Of a stretch of 64,000 nt of DNA, positions 48,936-55,116 are shown piece after piece (positions within the stretch are counted from its first letter, which is position 1; every line of letters begins with the position of its first letter). Made by a program: the position numbers and the translations under genes. The stretch lies in contig NZ_QOVF01000001.1 of the NCBI RefSeq assembly GCF_008365385.1, positions 496,001 through 560,000 of the forward strand, written 5' to 3'. Below the pieces are notes generated by a model. The model was not told the origin of the DNA, did no database searches, and was given only the letters and a program-made list of their open reading frames with translations. Source of the DNA: Halopseudomonas laoshanensis. Lineage in GTDB: Bacteria > Pseudomonadota > Gammaproteobacteria > Pseudomonadales > Pseudomonadaceae.

Positions 48936-49550
48936 TCATTTCGGGCGATAGAGCTGAAAGCGCTTGCCCAGTTCGAAATAATCAGCTGCGCCGCCGCCGC
49001 GCAGCACTGGTTGAGCGGCCGCTGTGTCGTAGATGCCATCTACCAGTAACGTCTTGTCGATATGCACCGCCACCACTTCGCCAAGAATCAACCACGTAGG
49101 TACGGGCACGCTGTCCAGCCCTTGCAGCTGGAGGATCTGGGTGACCTTGCATTCAAATGAAACCGGGCTTTCCAGCACTCGCGGCACTGCAATCACCTGA
49201 GAGGCGACCGGGGTCAAGTGGCCCAGTTCGAATTCATCCACCTCGGGCCCCACGGCCGCGCAGCTTTCATTCATTGCCTCGACCAACGGGCGGGTCACCA
49301 GGTTCCAGGCGAATTCACCGGTCTGCTCAATGTTGTTGAGGCTGTCCTTGCGGCCAACGCTGGCGAAGCCAATGATGGGGGGTACGTAATTGAAGGCGTT
49401 GAAAAAGCTGTAAGGCGCCAGATTCAGGCGGCCCTTGGCATCTTGCGAAGAGATCCAGCCAATGGGTCTTGGACCTACGATGGCGTTGAAGGGATCATGG
49501 GGCAAACCATGGCCCTGTGCCGTTTCGTAGTAATACATCTGCCTGCTCAT
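48936..49550 (-). CDS. Flavin reductase-like (DIM6/NTAB) FMN-binding protein
   Basis: 204 residues from the ATG at 49550, GGGAG eight bases upstream; a GTG nine bases earlier is in frame. Flavin-reductase fold: YYETAQGHGLPHDPFNAIVGPRPIGWIS opening, LAPYSFFNAFNYVPPIIGFA, FAWNLVTRPLVEAMN and an LGEVVAVHID. Binds FMN; substrate unknown. It shares an intergenic region with the divergent ORF6N-like gene. Confidence 0.93.
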   Translation of the reverse strand: MSRQMYYYETAQGHGLPHDPFNAIVGPRPIGWISSQDAKGRLNLAPYSFFNAFNYVPPIIGFASVGRKDSLNNIEQTGEFAWNLVTRPLVEAMNESCAAVGPEVDEFELGHLTPVASQVIAVPRVLESPVSFECKVTQILQLQGLDSVPVPTWLILGEVVAVHIDKTLLVDGIYDTAAAQPVLRGGGAADYFELGKRFQLYRPK

Positions 49551-49647
49551 GCAACCCACTCCCGTCTGATATTATCTGGCGTCATCTTTACCTGTTCCTG
49601 CGCTATCCTCAATACCCGCCCAACGCCGAATCATAGAAGGATGTGAC

Positions 49648-50092: not shown

Positions 50093-50857
50093 ATGACCAA
50101 AGCATTGTTCCGTTATCAAGACCGCTTGATCAATAGACTGGACCTCATTGATGACGCCGACTCCGAAGCGTTGATTCAGAAGCTCGCCTCGGTTACCACG
50201 CCGTCTACGGTGGCTTTTCTCAACCAGCATGCCTACAACCTGGCGCAGGAGGATCCTCGCCTGCAGCAGGGATTCGCCGAGATGACCTATCTGCTCAGGG
50301 ATGGCATCGGGATCAAGTGGGCCTGCCAGCTCAATGGTCGAGAGCCCAAAGCCAATATGAACGGCTCGGATTTTATCCCCCGGCTGGTTAATCATCTGCT
50401 CGAAGCGACCCCCTGTGATTACCAGTTTTTCGCCATGGGTACGCGCGATCCGTGGTTGGAAAAGGGCGCCGAAAACCTGTTCAAGCACCACCGCTTTCAC
50501 GCGGTTGACGGATTCCAGCCGGCGGAAACCTATCTGGATTACATTCGCGGGCATCTTGACCCGACGCGTGTCCCCGTTATTTTGCTGGCGATGGGCATGC
50601 CCAAGCAGGAAGAGCTGGCAAGGCGCATTCAGACGACGATAAATGGCCCCGCCTTGATCATCTGCGGCGGTGCGATTCTGGATTTCGCTGCTAATCGCGT
50701 AAAGCGGGCACCGCTGCTTTTCCGCAAATCCGGGATGGAGTGGCTGTACCGCCTACTCAAGGAACCCAGGCGGCTGGCCAGACGCTACATTCTGGGTATT
50801 CCTCGGTTTTTCTACTATCTCGCGCGTAACGGTATGGTTTCCCGCCAGGCGCGCTAG
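50093..50857 (+). CDS. WecG/TagA/CpsF family glycosyltransferase
   Basis: 254 residues from the ATG at 50093; an ATG at 50069 is in frame without a ribosome site. Family blocks: TVAFLNQHAYNLAQED, DGIGIKWACQLNG, ERMNGSD-like ANMNGSDFIPRLV, VPVILLAMGMPKQEELA and GGAILDFAANRVKRAPLLFRKSGMEWLYRLLKEPRRLARRY split by short turns. These GT26 enzymes add a sugar, often ManNAc(A), to a lipid-linked sugar at the membrane. It lies 72 bases before the acyl-CoA dehydrogenase-like gene and may serve the same pathway, but no other polysaccharide genes are near. Confidence 0.93.
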   Translation: MTKALFRYQDRLINRLDLIDDADSEALIQKLASVTTPSTVAFLNQHAYNLAQEDPRLQQGFAEMTYLLRDGIGIKWACQLNGREPKANMNGSDFIPRLVNHLLEATPCDYQFFAMGTRDPWLEKGAENLFKHHRFHAVDGFQPAETYLDYIRGHLDPTRVPVILLAMGMPKQEELARRIQTTINGPALIICGGAILDFAANRVKRAPLLFRKSGMEWLYRLLKEPRRLARRYILGIPRFFYYLARNGMVSRQAR

Positions 50858-50929
50858 TCCCGCCAAACAAATTGAACGATTTCGCCAGGTTTATGCCCAA
50901 AACTATGGACATAACGACGGAAGAAAATC

Positions 50930-51961
50930 ATGACGGACGACCTCCAGCGGCTCGCAGCCATTCTTGATGTCATTGCCAAGCGGCCCCAGCCTCTCCGTCA
51001 TGATGCCGAGCTTCAAGTAGCCATGCGGGTGTGCGTCGAGCAAGGTCTGGACCGCTTGCCCCTGCCGGCCGGGGGGCGGACTTTACAGCGCTGGCAAGCG
51101 TTGGCCTCGGTAGCGGGCCACGACCTGGCGCTGGCGAAACTCTATGAAAGTCATACTGATGCCATCGCCATCCTCCATGAACTCGATTCCAGGCATCTGC
51201 TAACCGATGGTTTGTGGGCTGTTTGGGCTGCCGATCCGCCTTACGCCCGCTTGAATGTGGGCCATGACGCGGAGGGCGTGGCGCGGTTGCATGGGCGAAA
51301 AGCCTGGTGCTCGGGAGCGGCGCAAATTGATAGCGCGCTGATTACCGCGTGGGATGATCAGAATCAGCCGCGATTGGTAGCGGTCAATCTCCATCAGCGC
51401 CAGGTCGCAATCAGCGATCAGGGCTGGCAAGCGGTAGGCATGGCCACCACGGCCAGCGTGGAAGTGCAGTTTGACCAGGCGCAGGCCACTTTTGTCGGCG
51501 GGTGCGACAGTTATCTGTCAAGACCTGGCTTCTGGCATGGCGGTGCCGGCATCGCGGCCTGTTGGTACGGGGCTGCTGCTGCATTGGGCCAAGCTCTTAA
51601 AGCGCATTGCGCCAAGCGAACCGATGATCCGCATGCGCAAGCGCATCTGGGGGCGGTGGACGCGACCCTGAGTAGTGCCGCAGGAGCGTTGCGCGACTGC
51701 GCCCAGTGGATTGAGCAGCACCCGCAGGAGGATGCGCAGTGGGTTGTACGTCGCGTCCGTGCGCAGGTAGAGCAGGCCGCGGACGAGGTGCTCAAACGAG
51801 TAGGCCGCGCGTTGGGGTCCACGCCCTATTGTCGCGATCCACATTTTGCCCGTCTGGCGGCGGATTTGCCGGTATTCATGCGTCAAAGCCATGCTGAACG
51901 GGATCTGGCCGAGCTGGGCCGACAGGTGGCGAATGCCGATCACCTGACCTGGCAGTTGTGA
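50930..51961 (+). CDS. Acyl-CoA dehydrogenase-like protein of the glycolipid-like cluster
   Basis: 343 residues, GGAAG before the ATG. It shows the fold of acyl-CoA dehydrogenases in reduced form: ASVAGHDLALAKLYESHTDAIAIL, the KAWCSGAAQIDSALITA middle sheet, WQAVGMATTASVEVQFD and a C-terminal helical half (HWGG-like WHGGAGIAACWYGAAAALG). Shorter than true family members (about 380), and I do not see the catalytic Glu in its usual context. Likely an FAD flavoprotein acting on an acyl chain or a related amine. First gene of a four-gene run with tiny gaps. Confidence 0.85.
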   Translation: MTDDLQRLAAILDVIAKRPQPLRHDAELQVAMRVCVEQGLDRLPLPAGGRTLQRWQALASVAGHDLALAKLYESHTDAIAILHELDSRHLLTDGLWAVWAADPPYARLNVGHDAEGVARLHGRKAWCSGAAQIDSALITAWDDQNQPRLVAVNLHQRQVAISDQGWQAVGMATTASVEVQFDQAQATFVGGCDSYLSRPGFWHGGAGIAACWYGAAAALGQALKAHCAKRTDDPHAQAHLGAVDATLSSAAGALRDCAQWIEQHPQEDAQWVVRRVRAQVEQAADEVLKRVGRALGSTPYCRDPHFARLAADLPVFMRQSHAERDLAELGRQVANADHLTWQL

Positions 51962-51967
51962 CGCGCC

Positions 51968-52792
51968 ATGACGCCTGAGCAGATTGCCGCTATTGCACAA
52001 TCAAAGCCCACCGTCGGGACCGATGTCAGAGCGCCTTCTGCCGGCGCTTTTGGAGTATGCGGGACGCCGCTGGAGGCATGGCAGCGCAGCAGCGCGTTAG
52101 CTGCAGTGGCCTCTGTTTCCTTGGCAGAGTTGATCCCGCAATCGGCGCGATTGATTGTCATCGCACCGCACCCTGACGATGAAGTCCTGGCCTGCGGCGG
52201 TCTGCTGGCGGCGCTGGCGGAACGAGGTACAGCCGTCACGCTGGTGTCGGTCACCGACGGAGAGGGCAGCCATCCGGATTCCCCGTTGTGGCCGCCACAC
52301 AGGCTACGCAGTGTCCGGCGGCAGGAAAGTCGCCGTGCCATGACGTTGTTAGGCTTCGCGCCGGACCAACTGGGCTGGCAATACCTGGGGCTGCCCGATG
52401 GCAGCGTCGCGGCCCACGCCGCTGCTCTGGAATCATGCCTGGCGTCCCTGGCGCGCCCAGGTGATTGCCTGCTGACCACCTGGCGCGGTGATGGTCACTG
52501 TGACCACGAGGCCGTAGGTGAGGTAGCTGCGGCCAGCGCCCGACGTGTCGGTGCGCGGCTGATCGAGGCGCCGGTTTGGGCCTGGCATTGGGCTGCACCG
52601 GAAGATCCGCGTTTACCCTGGGCGCGTGCGCGCAAATGGATGCTGGATGATCAGCAACTTGCCAGGAAGCGCCTTGCCGTGGCGGCTCACGTCAGTCAGT
52701 TGCAAGGCGACTCCAGTACGCAAGCCGGGCCAGTACTGGACAAGGTTACCCTGGCGCGTCTGCTGCAACCCTATGAACTGTTCTTTACATGA
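51968..52792 (+). CDS. PIG-L family deacetylase
   Basis: 274 residues. After a polar N-terminal 60 residues comes IVIAPHPDDEVLACGG, with the zinc-binding HPDDE near 68-72, then VTDGEGSHPDS, RRQESRRAMTLLG and GDGHCDHEAVG with the last zinc His. Zinc hydrolases of this family remove acetyl from N-acetyl sugars or their glycosides. Six bases after the dehydrogenase-like stop, 10 before the methyltransferase ATG. The cluster suggests the substrate is a small N-acetylated sugar compound. Confidence 0.94.
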   Translation: MTPEQIAAIAQSKPTVGTDVRAPSAGAFGVCGTPLEAWQRSSALAAVASVSLAELIPQSARLIVIAPHPDDEVLACGGLLAALAERGTAVTLVSVTDGEGSHPDSPLWPPHRLRSVRRQESRRAMTLLGFAPDQLGWQYLGLPDGSVAAHAAALESCLASLARPGDCLLTTWRGDGHCDHEAVGEVAAASARRVGARLIEAPVWAWHWAAPEDPRLPWARARKWMLDDQQLARKRLAVAAHVSQLQGDSSTQAGPVLDKVTLARLLQPYELFFT

Positions 52793-52802
52793 GGGTAGTG
52801 CC

Positions 52803-53402
52803 ATGAATATGCCCGCCTCTTACTTCGACAAAATGTTCGAAGCCAGTGAAGATCCTTGGGCCTTCCGCGAGCGCTGGTATGAAAAGCGTAAGCGTGATCT
52901 GACCCTGGCCAGCTTGTTGCGCCAGCAATATCAGCGAGTATTTGAGCCCGGCTGCGCAAACGGCGAACTCAGTCTGGCATTGGCCGAACGCAGTGTGGGT
53001 TTCCTCGGGCTGGACATATGCGAGCGCGCGGTTGCGTTGGCTCGCGCCCGTCTGGCGCAGCAAAGTGCCGCGACAATCAATCTTGGCCAGGTGCCAGAGG
53101 ATTGGCCTGCAGGCAGTTTCGATCTAATCGTGCTCAGCGAGCTGGGCTACTATCTGGATGAAGAGCAGTGGGTGCGAGTTATTCAACTCGCGCAGCAGAG
53201 CCTGCGGCCGCACGGCACGCTGCTGGCGTGCCACTGGTTACATCCTATCGAAGGCTGTCCGATGGACGGCGCTCGCGTCCACCAATTACTTGCGCAGCAC
53301 CTCAAGCTGCATCGTAACGTACGCCACGAAGAAGCAGATTTTCTGCTCGAAGTCTGGAGTAGCGATCTGGCCCCGATGCGCCTGCAGGAGCGGGTGACTT
53401 GA
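52803..53402 (+). CDS. NodS-like SAM-dependent methyltransferase
   Basis: 199 residues from the ATG at 52803 with GAGGG upstream. The frame is open 59 codons further, but inside the deacetylase gene. YFDKMFEASEDPWAFRERWYEKRKRDLTLA, here split at turns, is the NodS-type opening. The SAM site is VFEPGCANGELSLALAERS with GLDICERAVALA and VPEDWPAGSFDLIVLSELGYYL. NodS N-methylates the amino sugar of Nod factors after deacetylation. The gene overlaps the next one by four bases (TTGA). Confidence 0.93.
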   Translation: MNMPASYFDKMFEASEDPWAFRERWYEKRKRDLTLASLLRQQYQRVFEPGCANGELSLALAERSVGFLGLDICERAVALARARLAQQSAATINLGQVPEDWPAGSFDLIVLSELGYYLDEEQWVRVIQLAQQSLRPHGTLLACHWLHPIEGCPMDGARVHQLLAQHLKLHRNVRHEEADFLLEVWSSDLAPMRLQERVT

Positions 53403-54097
53403 TTGGCGTTATCGTGCCGGCCCACAACGAGGAGGCGCTGCTCGCCGACTGTCTGCGCTCGGTGCAAGCGGCTGGCAGGCACGCGGATCTGCTCGGAGAG
53501 ACCGTCTGCGTAGTAGTGGTGCTGGATACCTGCGAAGACCGTTCAGCAGCGATAGCCAATAGCTTTGGCGCCGATATTCTGGAAGTGCAGGAGCGCAACG
53601 TTGGGCATGCACGCCGGGTCGGGGCTGAATGGTTGCTGGCCAAGGGCGCGCGCTGGCTGGCTATTACCGATGCCGACACGCTGGTGCCGGAGGATTGGAT
53701 CAGTTGTCAGCTGAGTTTCAAGGCCGACGCAGTGTGCGGCACTGTGCGCATTGATTGCTGGGAAGACCTGCCTGATACAGTGCGTTACCGTTACGCTCAG
53801 GAGTATCAGCAGCGCGAAGAGCACCGGCATATTCACGGTGCCAATCTCGGCGTCTGCTCGCAGGCCTATCAACGCGTGGGCGGCTTTCTTTCGCTTGTAG
53901 CGCATGAAGATGTGGCGCTGGTCAGAGCACTGGAACAAGCTGGCGCGCGGATCGCCTGGACCGCACTGAATACTGTCAGTACCAGCGCCCGCCTGACTGC
54001 GCGAGCTCGTGGCGGCTTCGGTGATTACCTCAAGGCGCTGGCTGCCGAGACCGTGGCTGCCGGTGTCCAGGTGGCAACGTCACGGCCACTCCGGTAG
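53399..54097 (+). CDS. Family 2 glycosyltransferase
   Basis: 232 residues from TTG at 53399, overlapping the methyltransferase stop (TTGA). GT-A fold: GVIVPAHNEEALLADCLRSV, VVVVLDTCEDRSAAIA, GHARRVGAEWLLA, and the metal site ITDADTLVPEDWI. Later HGANLGVCSQAYQRVGGF and AHEDVALVRALE. No TM helix, so cytoplasmic and non-processive. It probably adds the sugar that the deacetylase and methyltransferase modify. Last gene of the run. Confidence 0.94.
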   Translation: MIGVIVPAHNEEALLADCLRSVQAAGRHADLLGETVCVVVVLDTCEDRSAAIANSFGADILEVQERNVGHARRVGAEWLLAKGARWLAITDADTLVPEDWISCQLSFKADAVCGTVRIDCWEDLPDTVRYRYAQEYQQREEHRHIHGANLGVCSQAYQRVGGFLSLVAHEDVALVRALEQAGARIAWTALNTVSTSARLTARARGGFGDYLKALAAETVAAGVQVATSRPLR

Positions 54098-54208
54098 CGG
54101 CCAAGGCGGTGGCAAAACGTGCAGCGGTGCCATGATCCAGCTCCATTAGTCTGAACTTTCGGCGGTGTGTTGGTCGTATCTTCTACATGAACGTGATTGG
54201 AGTTGAAT

Positions 54209-54745
54209 ATGAGCAATGCATTGCAGGGCAAGCATGTAGCCATTCTGGTAACTGATGGATTCGAGCAAGTCGAGTTGACCAGCCCCAGAGATGCGCTGAA
54301 GGCGGCTGGCGCCAGTGTGGATATATTGGCCGATAAATCTGGCAAGGTTGAAGGCTGGAATCACGACAAGCCGGCAGACAGCTTCACGGTGGACAAGACC
54401 TTCGAAAATGCGTCTTTGGCTGACTACGATGCCATCGTGCTGCCGGGTGGCGTGTTCAATAGCGATAACATCCGTATGGATACTGATGCCCAGTCACTGG
54501 TACTCGAGGCCGCTGGGTCGGGCAAACCAATCGCAGTTATCTGCCACGGTGCCTGGATATTGGCCTCGACCGATTTGGTGCGTGGCAAGACCATCACCAG
54601 CTTTCCATCGCTGAAAGACGACCTTACCAATGCTGGCGCCGATTGGGTCGATCAGGAAGTGGTCGTAGACGGCGAGTTGATCAGCAGCCGCACTCCGGAT
54701 GACCTGCCTGCCTTTAACAAGGCGTTGGTCGCTGCGCTGAGCTAA
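54209..54745 (+). CDS. DJ-1/PfpI family protein (class I glutamine amidotransferase-like)
   Basis: 178 residues from the ATG at 54209 with GGAG six bases upstream. Starts KHVAILVTDGFEQVELTSP with the conserved Glu, then YDAIVLPGGVFNSDNIR and the nucleophile Cys in AVICHGAWIL. The end is ELISSRTPDDLPAFNKAL. Members include proteases, glyoxalases and general stress proteins (YhbO type). Which activity applies here is not visible. Followed by a strong terminator. Confidence 0.95.
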   Translation: MSNALQGKHVAILVTDGFEQVELTSPRDALKAAGASVDILADKSGKVEGWNHDKPADSFTVDKTFENASLADYDAIVLPGGVFNSDNIRMDTDAQSLVLEAAGSGKPIAVICHGAWILASTDLVRGKTITSFPSLKDDLTNAGADWVDQEVVVDGELISSRTPDDLPAFNKALVAALS

Positions 54746-54779
54746 GCGGCAACCGCTGCACACTGGTGCTTCGGCCACT

Positions 54780-54817
54780 AAAAAGCCTCATCCGCGAACC
54801 GGATGAGGCTTTTTTTA
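54780..54817 (+). terminator. Bidirectional terminator after the PfpI-like gene
   Basis: Ten-base perfect arms GCCTCATCCG and CGGATGAGGC, a five-base loop, five A before and seven T after. Shared with the convergent small periplasmic protein. Confidence 0.93.
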
Positions 54818-54828
54818 TTCGGCTAAGA

Positions 54829-55116
54829 TCATTCCAGCTCGCTGGTGCAGCTTTGTGCGGCGGCAATCAGCCGTTCCTGAATGGCTGGATCAACGGCATC
54901 ACCGCCCATGGCTTCCAGTTCTTCAGTGCTGAGATCCTTTGCAACCTCGTCCGCGGCGCAACCACAAAAGGTCTCTGCCTTGACTGAAGAGTGCTCCAGT
55001 TGCGTGGTTTCAACGCATTCGGCGACGAAGTTTTCCCGAGCATTGTCAGGCCAGTCGGCAAAGGCGGGAAGGGCGAAGGCCAGCGGCGTAAGAAAAGCGA
55101 TGAGATGACGCTTCAT
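54829..55116 (-). CDS. Small periplasmic protein of unknown function
   Basis: 95 residues. Signal peptide MKRHLIAFLTPLAFALPAFA, then a mature chain of 75 residues with four Cys (ECVE, FCGCAADE, SCTSELE), rich in acid residues, probably with two disulfides. Similar short proteins with a CGCxADE pattern are common in Pseudomonas with no known role. AGGAG lies upstream of the ATG. Confidence 0.85.
   Translation of the reverse strand: MKRHLIAFLTPLAFALPAFADWPDNARENFVAECVETTQLEHSSVKAETFCGCAADEVAKDLSTEELEAMGGDAVDPAIQERLIAAAQSCTSELE

What the first reader, a model, noticed from the sequence alone, without database searches (positions are those of the whole stretch)
50930..54097. Four-gene cluster with Nod-factor-like chemistry in a pseudomonad
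Four genes in one direction, with two overlaps or near-contacts, encode an acyl-CoA dehydrogenase-like flavoprotein, a PIG-L N-deacetylase, a NodS-type N-methyltransferase and a soluble family 2 glycosyltransferase. Nod factors are made by a glycosyltransferase (NodC), N-deacetylase (NodB), N-methyltransferase (NodS) and acyl transfer. Here the sugar, deacetylation and methylation steps have counterparts from partly different families, and the flavoprotein may act on an acyl chain. I know of no described product for this set. A WecG/TagA glycosyltransferase sits just upstream. The product is proposed, not shown: a small N-methylated or N-acylated glycoside.
Basis: partly seen in the sequence, partly recalled or inferred. 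Interest (0 to 1): 0.78.

Follow-up and report, generated by a model that had tools for sequence, protein, structure and literature searches.

The report
Stress-linked amino-sugar synthesis gene module
A four-gene set for making an unknown small amino-sugar compound recurs across many bacteria, often beside genes for trehalose and other stress protection, so it probably makes a protective molecule inside the cell and not a Nod-type plant signal.

Summary
The four genes are real, intact and in the stated order; the proteins look soluble. The flavoprotein occurs in 80 of 298 Pseudomonadaceae genomes and 33 of 398 genomes of the phylum, and three Streptomycetaceae plasmids carry all four genes. 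In the phylum sample strong flavoprotein and glycosyltransferase matches share 21 genomes of 22 and 21. The context is stress, not symbiosis: treY-glgX or ligD in 69 of 80 Pseudomonas-type loci, otsA directly upstream in five other loci, catalase or ferritin-like genes in others. In this window the set is an insertion together with a PfpI gene; a relative has the empty site. The flavoprotein lacks both known catalytic glutamates of acyl-CoA dehydrogenases and resembles DszC/KijD3-type monooxygenases, so action on an acyl chain is unlikely. Best reading: an intracellular pathway that transfers an N-acetylamino sugar to a small acceptor, deacetylates, N-methylates and oxidises it, giving a stress protectant. 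Trehalose or another non-reducing sugar is a candidate acceptor. Product and acceptor are not shown. My searches found no paper on the set.

The parts
50930..51961 (+). acyl-CoA-dehydrogenase-fold flavoprotein, probably a flavin-dependent monooxygenase (343 aa)
51968..52792 (+). PIG-L N-deacetylase with intact APHPDDE and DGHxDH motifs (274 aa)
52803..53402 (+). NodS-like SAM-dependent (N-)methyltransferase (199 aa)
53399..54097 (+). soluble GT2 glycosyltransferase, TDADT and HxHxHGAN motifs (232 aa)
54197..54745 (+). DJ-1/PfpI family protein, inside the same inserted block; a PfpI gene is also near the set in seven other loci besides the twin L170
50837..54775 (.). stretch absent from the otherwise colinear locus of relative G012 (empty site); 1-kb windows inside have G+C 0.58-0.65, those outside 0.52-0.60
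48936..49559 (-). flavin-reductase-like gene, also missing at the G012 site; possible but unproven electron donor for the flavoprotein
   Evidence: family name recalled, no family search made

Best explanation
The four genes are a mobile, widely conserved pathway for a small intracellular amino-sugar glycoside that serves in the general stress response, next to trehalose. Proposed order: (1) the soluble GT2 enzyme moves an N-acetylamino sugar from a nucleotide sugar to a small polar acceptor, perhaps trehalose or another non-reducing sugar; (2) the PIG-L enzyme removes the acetyl group; (3) the NodS-like enzyme N-methylates the freed amine; (4) the flavoprotein oxidises the product, most simply at nitrogen as in the KijD3/nitrososynthase enzymes of the same fold. 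Shown here: families, order, conservation, co-occurrence, lack of membrane segments, stress and trehalose linkage, an empty site in a relative, loss of the dehydrogenase bases. Inferred: each substrate, the order of steps, N-oxidation, the protective role.
For: Order ACAD-PIGL-MT-GT in 64 of the 80 closest loci of the genome scan and in 23 of 45 further loci. ACAD (E<=1e-80) in 22 and GT (E<=1e-70) in 21 of 398 genomes, 21 shared, in G086 and G538 on different contigs. TreY and GlgX in 38 and LigD in 31 of 80 Pseudomonas-type loci, without overlap. Of 57 flavoprotein-bearing genomes with a listed TreY place, 40 have TreY 2.6-2.9 kb upstream on the same strand. OtsA directly upstream in L010, L017, L154, L159 and L168. 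A GT4 fused to a sucrose-phosphate phosphatase domain in L155; Mn-catalase or DUF892 near the set in L156-L158. Deacetylase and methyltransferase nearest to chitobiose deacetylase and NodS. DszC, TdsC, KijD3 and nitrososynthase among Foldseek's top 50. CSGA motif shared with an SfnB-like protein, no Glu at either base position. No membrane segment.
Confidence: 0.5

Rival explanations
1. Nod-factor-like lipochitooligosaccharide or other exported plant signal.
For: NodS is the closest named, characterised PDB relative of the methyltransferase profile; deacetylation and sugar transfer have analogues in Nod factor synthesis.
Against: No membrane chitin synthase, acyltransferase or exporter in the set; no membrane segment in the four proteins. 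NodC matches in the genome are all below cut-off; no NodA match, but the controls were silent as well. Plasmid carriers come from soil, sewage, animals and patients, and the neighbours are often stress genes.
Confidence: 0.04
2. The enzymes modify an existing polymer or glycoconjugate of the same stress islands, such as glycogen-type alpha-glucan, capping it with N-methylated amino sugar.
For: Linked to glgX/treY in Pseudomonas; extra glycosyltransferase genes join it in L171 and L155.
Against: Also linked to otsBA and to a sucrose-phosphate-synthase-like gene, which by family make disaccharides and no glucan.
Confidence: 0.15
3. A thiol cofactor pathway related to mycothiol or bacillithiol.
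For: The deacetylase matches BshB1, BshB2, Mca and MshB models weakly.
Against: All these matches are far below cut-off (best 43.3 of 182.5 bits); no cysteine ligase in the set; the one MshC match in the genome is below cut-off and all 14 controls ring too, as expected of cysteinyl-tRNA synthetase (recalled).
Confidence: 0.04
4. An ordinary specialised metabolite (antibiotic or toxin-like aminoglycoside) that merely travels with stress islands.
For: Patchy distribution, plasmid carriage, empty site; the window methyltransferase also hits gentamicin N-3'' methyltransferase (1.2e-7).
Against: No resistance or export gene recurs in the set; an MFS gene follows it in the two Acinetobacter plasmids shown, and MFS-like genes judged by eye lie within about 4 kb in L165, L167 and L169. 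Repeated linkage to non-reducing-sugar synthesis.
Confidence: 0.17

Closest known systems
Nod factor synthesis (NodC, NodB, NodS, NodA)
   Same: sugar transfer, N-deacetylation and a NodS-like methyltransferase (3ofj, 1.6e-28)
   Different: soluble GT2 instead of membrane NodC, PIG-L instead of NodB, no acyltransferase in the set, extra flavoprotein, stress context
Trehalose/alpha-glucan operons of Pseudomonas (glgA-treZ-malQ-treY-glgX, PSPTO_3125-3130)
   Same: GlgX lies directly upstream on the same strand in 34 of 80 loci
   Different: the passages I saw in papers on this locus (PMC8982409, PMC8719888, PMC8084333, PMC3591346) describe it without the four genes
DszC/TdsC/SfnB/MsuC and KijD3/nitrososynthase flavin monooxygenases
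   Same: acyl-CoA dehydrogenase fold; best PDB sequence hits TdsC 3.6e-12 and DszC 1.9e-9; CSGA motif
   Different: shorter (343 aa), SfnB-type His not at the aligned position, no conserved reductase gene
Diacetylchitobiose deacetylase and other PIG-L (LmbE) enzymes
   Same: conserved zinc and acid motifs (roles of the residues recalled)
   Different: substrate unknown; 28 of 80 loci have a further PIG-L hit, mostly with PHPGDE
4isc, 'Methyltransferase'
   Same: solved member of this methyltransferase family (1.8e-64 with the profile, 1.4e-52 with the window protein)
   Different: no function named in the listing; source organism not checked

Membership tests
Nod factor synthesis | NodC-type membrane chitin synthase | tested here: not met
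   GT2 of 232 aa without membrane segment (maximum 19-residue hydropathy 1.27); the four genome matches to NodC are below the cut-off
Nod factor synthesis | NodB-family (polysaccharide deacetylase) enzyme in the set | tested here: not met
   PIG-L is the only Pfam family found in the deacetylase at E<=1
Nod factor synthesis | NodA acyltransferase | tested here: inconclusive
   none in the set; genome search empty, but no control genome rang
NodS equivalog | NCBIfam NF041650 cut-off of 300 bits | tested here: not met
   48.6 bits; Pfam NodS 34.5 over its cut-off of 24: a relative, not NodS
Mycothiol/bacillithiol synthesis | BshB/MshB deacetylase over cut-off and a cysteine ligase | tested here: not met
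Acyl-CoA dehydrogenase (dehydrogenating) | catalytic Glu at the MCAD-376 or IVD-254 position (names recalled) | tested here: not met
   each of four dehydrogenases of the same genome has one or the other; the 16 family members shown have S, H, N, C, P or A at the first position and Gly at the second
DszC/SfnB-type flavin monooxygenase | fold and CSGA motif | tested here: met
   L155 has CSGS, and the members from other classes of the phylum have ASGA or ATGA
DszC/SfnB-type flavin monooxygenase | catalytic His near the C-terminus (role recalled) | tested here: not met
   the SfnB-like His aligns with invariant Gln319; His321 is two residues away and is absent in the members from other classes of the phylum
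DszC/SfnB-type flavin monooxygenase | separate flavin reductase | tested here: inconclusive
   a reductase-like gene 1.4 kb away only in the window and L170 among the loci searched; a housekeeping reductase could serve
KijD3-type amino-sugar N-oxygenase | N-oxidation of an amino sugar | not testable with these tools
   fold match only (4kcf, 3m9v, 3mxl)

The most novel reading that the evidence does not exclude
An undescribed class of intracellular stress metabolites: N-methylated, N-oxidised amino-sugar glycosides, possibly of trehalose or sucrose, made by a mobile four-enzyme module spread over Pseudomonadota and Actinomycetota and joined again and again to whichever non-reducing-sugar pathway the host uses.
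Probability: 0.2. Interest if true: 0.85.

Novelty: new variant of a known kind. Interest (0 to 1): 0.6.

Why it matters
Trehalose and glycogen loci of pseudomonads are studied for drought, salt and leaf-surface survival, yet in many species four unexplained genes follow directly behind them. If they make a second protectant, stress effects credited to trehalose or glucan in those species may need to be re-read. The recurring link to different trehalose routes, and once to a sucrose-type gene, gives a concrete, testable guess at the acceptor. The flavoprotein would add a stress-linked branch to the acyl-CoA-dehydrogenase-fold monooxygenases.

Tried and rejected
Nod-factor and thiol readings: tested and set aside. 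WecG as a member of the set: rejected. The flavoprotein as a true acyl-CoA dehydrogenase: unlikely by residues, though fold scores alone do not decide. A conserved flavin reductase: not found outside the window and L170 in the loci searched. A sigma-70-like promoter at 50600-54900: none found, where 1.4 are expected in shuffles. Distance-matrix correlation of the four proteins over 35-38 loci (r 0.70-0.86, 0 of 500 permutations as high) agrees with joint inheritance but cannot be told from shared species history. The TreY/ACAD association (p 7e-16) is not corrected for relatedness and takes all 79 TreY matches as over the cut-off. The ACAD/GT thresholds were set after I saw the gap in the tables; at E<=1e-20 for both, ACAD is in 33 and GT in 26 of 398 genomes, 25 shared, G395 with GT only.

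Stress-gene control: 24 of 45 loci hit at least one query, but six loci (L006-L010, L015) supplied queries and L170 is the window's twin; without these seven, 17 of 38 against 2 of 20 arbitrary stretches from 15 of the same genomes. L012 and L017 are near relatives of query-source loci and are among the 17; some of the 17 rest on weak matches (L155, L179, L181). The control holds no plasmid and no genome from the other classes of the phylum.

Labels: in the first tree L035 and L084 were mislabelled and L056 and L065 left unlabelled; corrected. A wrong ORF (L221) entered the first profile comparison; it was repeated without it.

Literature: ten searches in an open-licence library; no listed paper was about the set, judged by listings and the passages cited. 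Freeman 2010 was seen only as a citation. That PSPTO_3131-3134 are the four genes is my recollection; a search for those tags found no paper.
Full report
OBSERVATION. The four ORFs are as described. Pfam confirms PIG-L, NodS-like/Methyltransf_25 and GT2 over cut-off; the acyl-CoA dehydrogenase match is sub-threshold by sequence, but the AlphaFold model (39 sequences, pLDDT 87.1, pTM 0.90) has the whole fold. None of the four proteins has a membrane segment by a simple hydropathy scan. The genome has one PIG-L match.

CONSERVATION. In the genus, 4 of 37 genomes match the flavoprotein, one of them weakly. In the family, 80 of 298 genomes in 9 of 19 genera match at E<=1e-20; in the phylum sample, 33 of 398. 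On plasmid records, 37 match, 20 of them Acinetobacter; I fetched 12 of the 37, and three Streptomycetaceae (Streptomyces, Kitasatospora, Embleya) carry all four genes. Of these 80, 64 have ACAD-PIGL-MT-GT in order on one strand, 21 of them with a further PIG-L within 3.2 kb; 13 have ACAD-PIGL-MT with the GT elsewhere or not found; one lacks PIG-L; one has the other three more than 5 kb downstream; one is broken. Of 45 further loci, 23 have the order, 7 have GT first, 1 has PIGL-MT-GT-ACAD, 4 ACAD-MT-GT, 6 ACAD-PIGL-MT, 3 ACAD and MT only, 1 ACAD alone.

CO-OCCURRENCE. In the same 398 genomes the GT (E<=1e-70) is in 21 and the flavoprotein (E<=1e-80) in 22, with 21 shared (Fisher 5e-34; not corrected for relatedness, thresholds set at the visible gap). 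At E<=1e-20 the numbers are 26, 33 and 25. In G086 and G538 the GT lies on another contig. The exception, G430, has other glycosyltransferases beside its ACAD and MT.

CONTEXT. Of the 80 loci, 38 hold TreY and GlgX and 31 hold LigD, with no overlap; 11 hold neither. GlgX is directly upstream in 34 and LigD in 30. TreY is found in 79 of the 80 flavoprotein-bearing Pseudomonadaceae and is over its cut-off in 199 of all 298. Of 57 with a listed TreY place, 40 have it 2.6-2.9 kb upstream on the same strand, 11 at 21-23 kb, 1 at 5.5 kb on the other strand, 2 (the window genome and its twin) over 360 kb away, 3 on another contig. G047, the one without a TreY match, has OtsB-OtsA directly upstream (L168). 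OtsA is also directly upstream in two Comamonas plasmids, in G367 and in G486; in Comamonas the order is otsA-ACAD-PIGL-MT-GT-otsB. The two Acinetobacter plasmids shown carry otsA-otsB nearby on the other strand, with catalase and DUF421; a Legionella lytica plasmid has otsB-GH65-PIGL-MT-GT-ACAD. G430 has a GT4 fused to a sucrose-phosphate-phosphatase domain, a gene without Pfam match, a GT2 gene, MT and ACAD. Mn-catalase, DUF892 or DUF2383 genes adjoin or lie near the set in L156-L158 and L173. After leaving out query-source loci and the twin, 17 of 38 loci hold at least one stress or trehalose query against 2 of 20 arbitrary stretches (limits under Tried and rejected). On a flavoprotein tree the Ots linkage needs 3 changes and the TreY-GlgX linkage 2, so the link to trehalose probably arose more than once; three changes can also be one gain and two losses.

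ORIGIN IN THIS WINDOW. G012 is colinear on both sides (73-81% identical DNA), but 50837-54775 is missing there, taking out the four genes and PfpI while leaving WecG. G+C is 0.58-0.65 in 1-kb windows inside the block and 0.52-0.60 outside, a modest difference. The flavin-reductase-like gene at 48936-49559 is missing at that site too. A PfpI gene is also near the set in L008, L013, L035, L048, L049, L055 and L095.

READING. Enzymes without membrane segments, no exporter in the set, and repeated linkage to non-reducing-sugar synthesis point to an intracellular protectant glycoside. GlcNAc-type transfer, deacetylation, N-methylation and oxidation are inferred from families. Trehalose as acceptor is a guess from linkage alone. 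PIG-L being absent from some copies is the main loose end.

LITERATURE. Passages found by term search in PMC8982409, PMC8719888, PMC8084333, PMC3591346 and PMC4636370 treat the Pseudomonas trehalose/glucan genes and do not mention the four. A passage of PMC8084333 states that P. aeruginosa, in common with other pseudomonads, lacks otsA/otsB; G047, of the window's family, has them. I found no paper on the set.

Noticed in passing
28 of the 80 loci L018-L097, for example L060, L061, L092, about 2 kb after ACAD: A further PIG-L copy near the GT; of the 25 such copies in the printed tally, 24 have PHPGDE in place of PHPDDE and most have N, T, S or P in place of the motif His: a conserved, dead-looking deacetylase beside the live one (residue roles recalled).
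   Followed up: partly
L171:10955-13989; L155:2975-7419; L176:2674-5685: Extra glycosyltransferase genes join the set: GT2 with a GT7C domain, a gene with the motif VHHxGxGH and no Pfam match, and a GT4 in L171 and L155 (L176 judged by eye). Perhaps a longer version of the pathway.
   Followed up: partly
L155:2975-5362: GT4 fused to a sucrose-phosphate-phosphatase domain close to MT and ACAD in G430.
   Followed up: partly
L168 (G047): otsB-otsA in a member of the window's family, although a passage of PMC8084333 says that pseudomonads lack them.
   Followed up: no
window 48936-49559: Flavin-reductase-like gene missing at the G012 site, a second difference 1.4 kb from the insertion.
   Followed up: partly
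L008:5021-5743 and L008:8959-11379: Cupriavidus plasmid has ACAD-MT-GT without PIG-L between, but a separate PIG-L gene about 3 kb away beside catalase.
   Followed up: no
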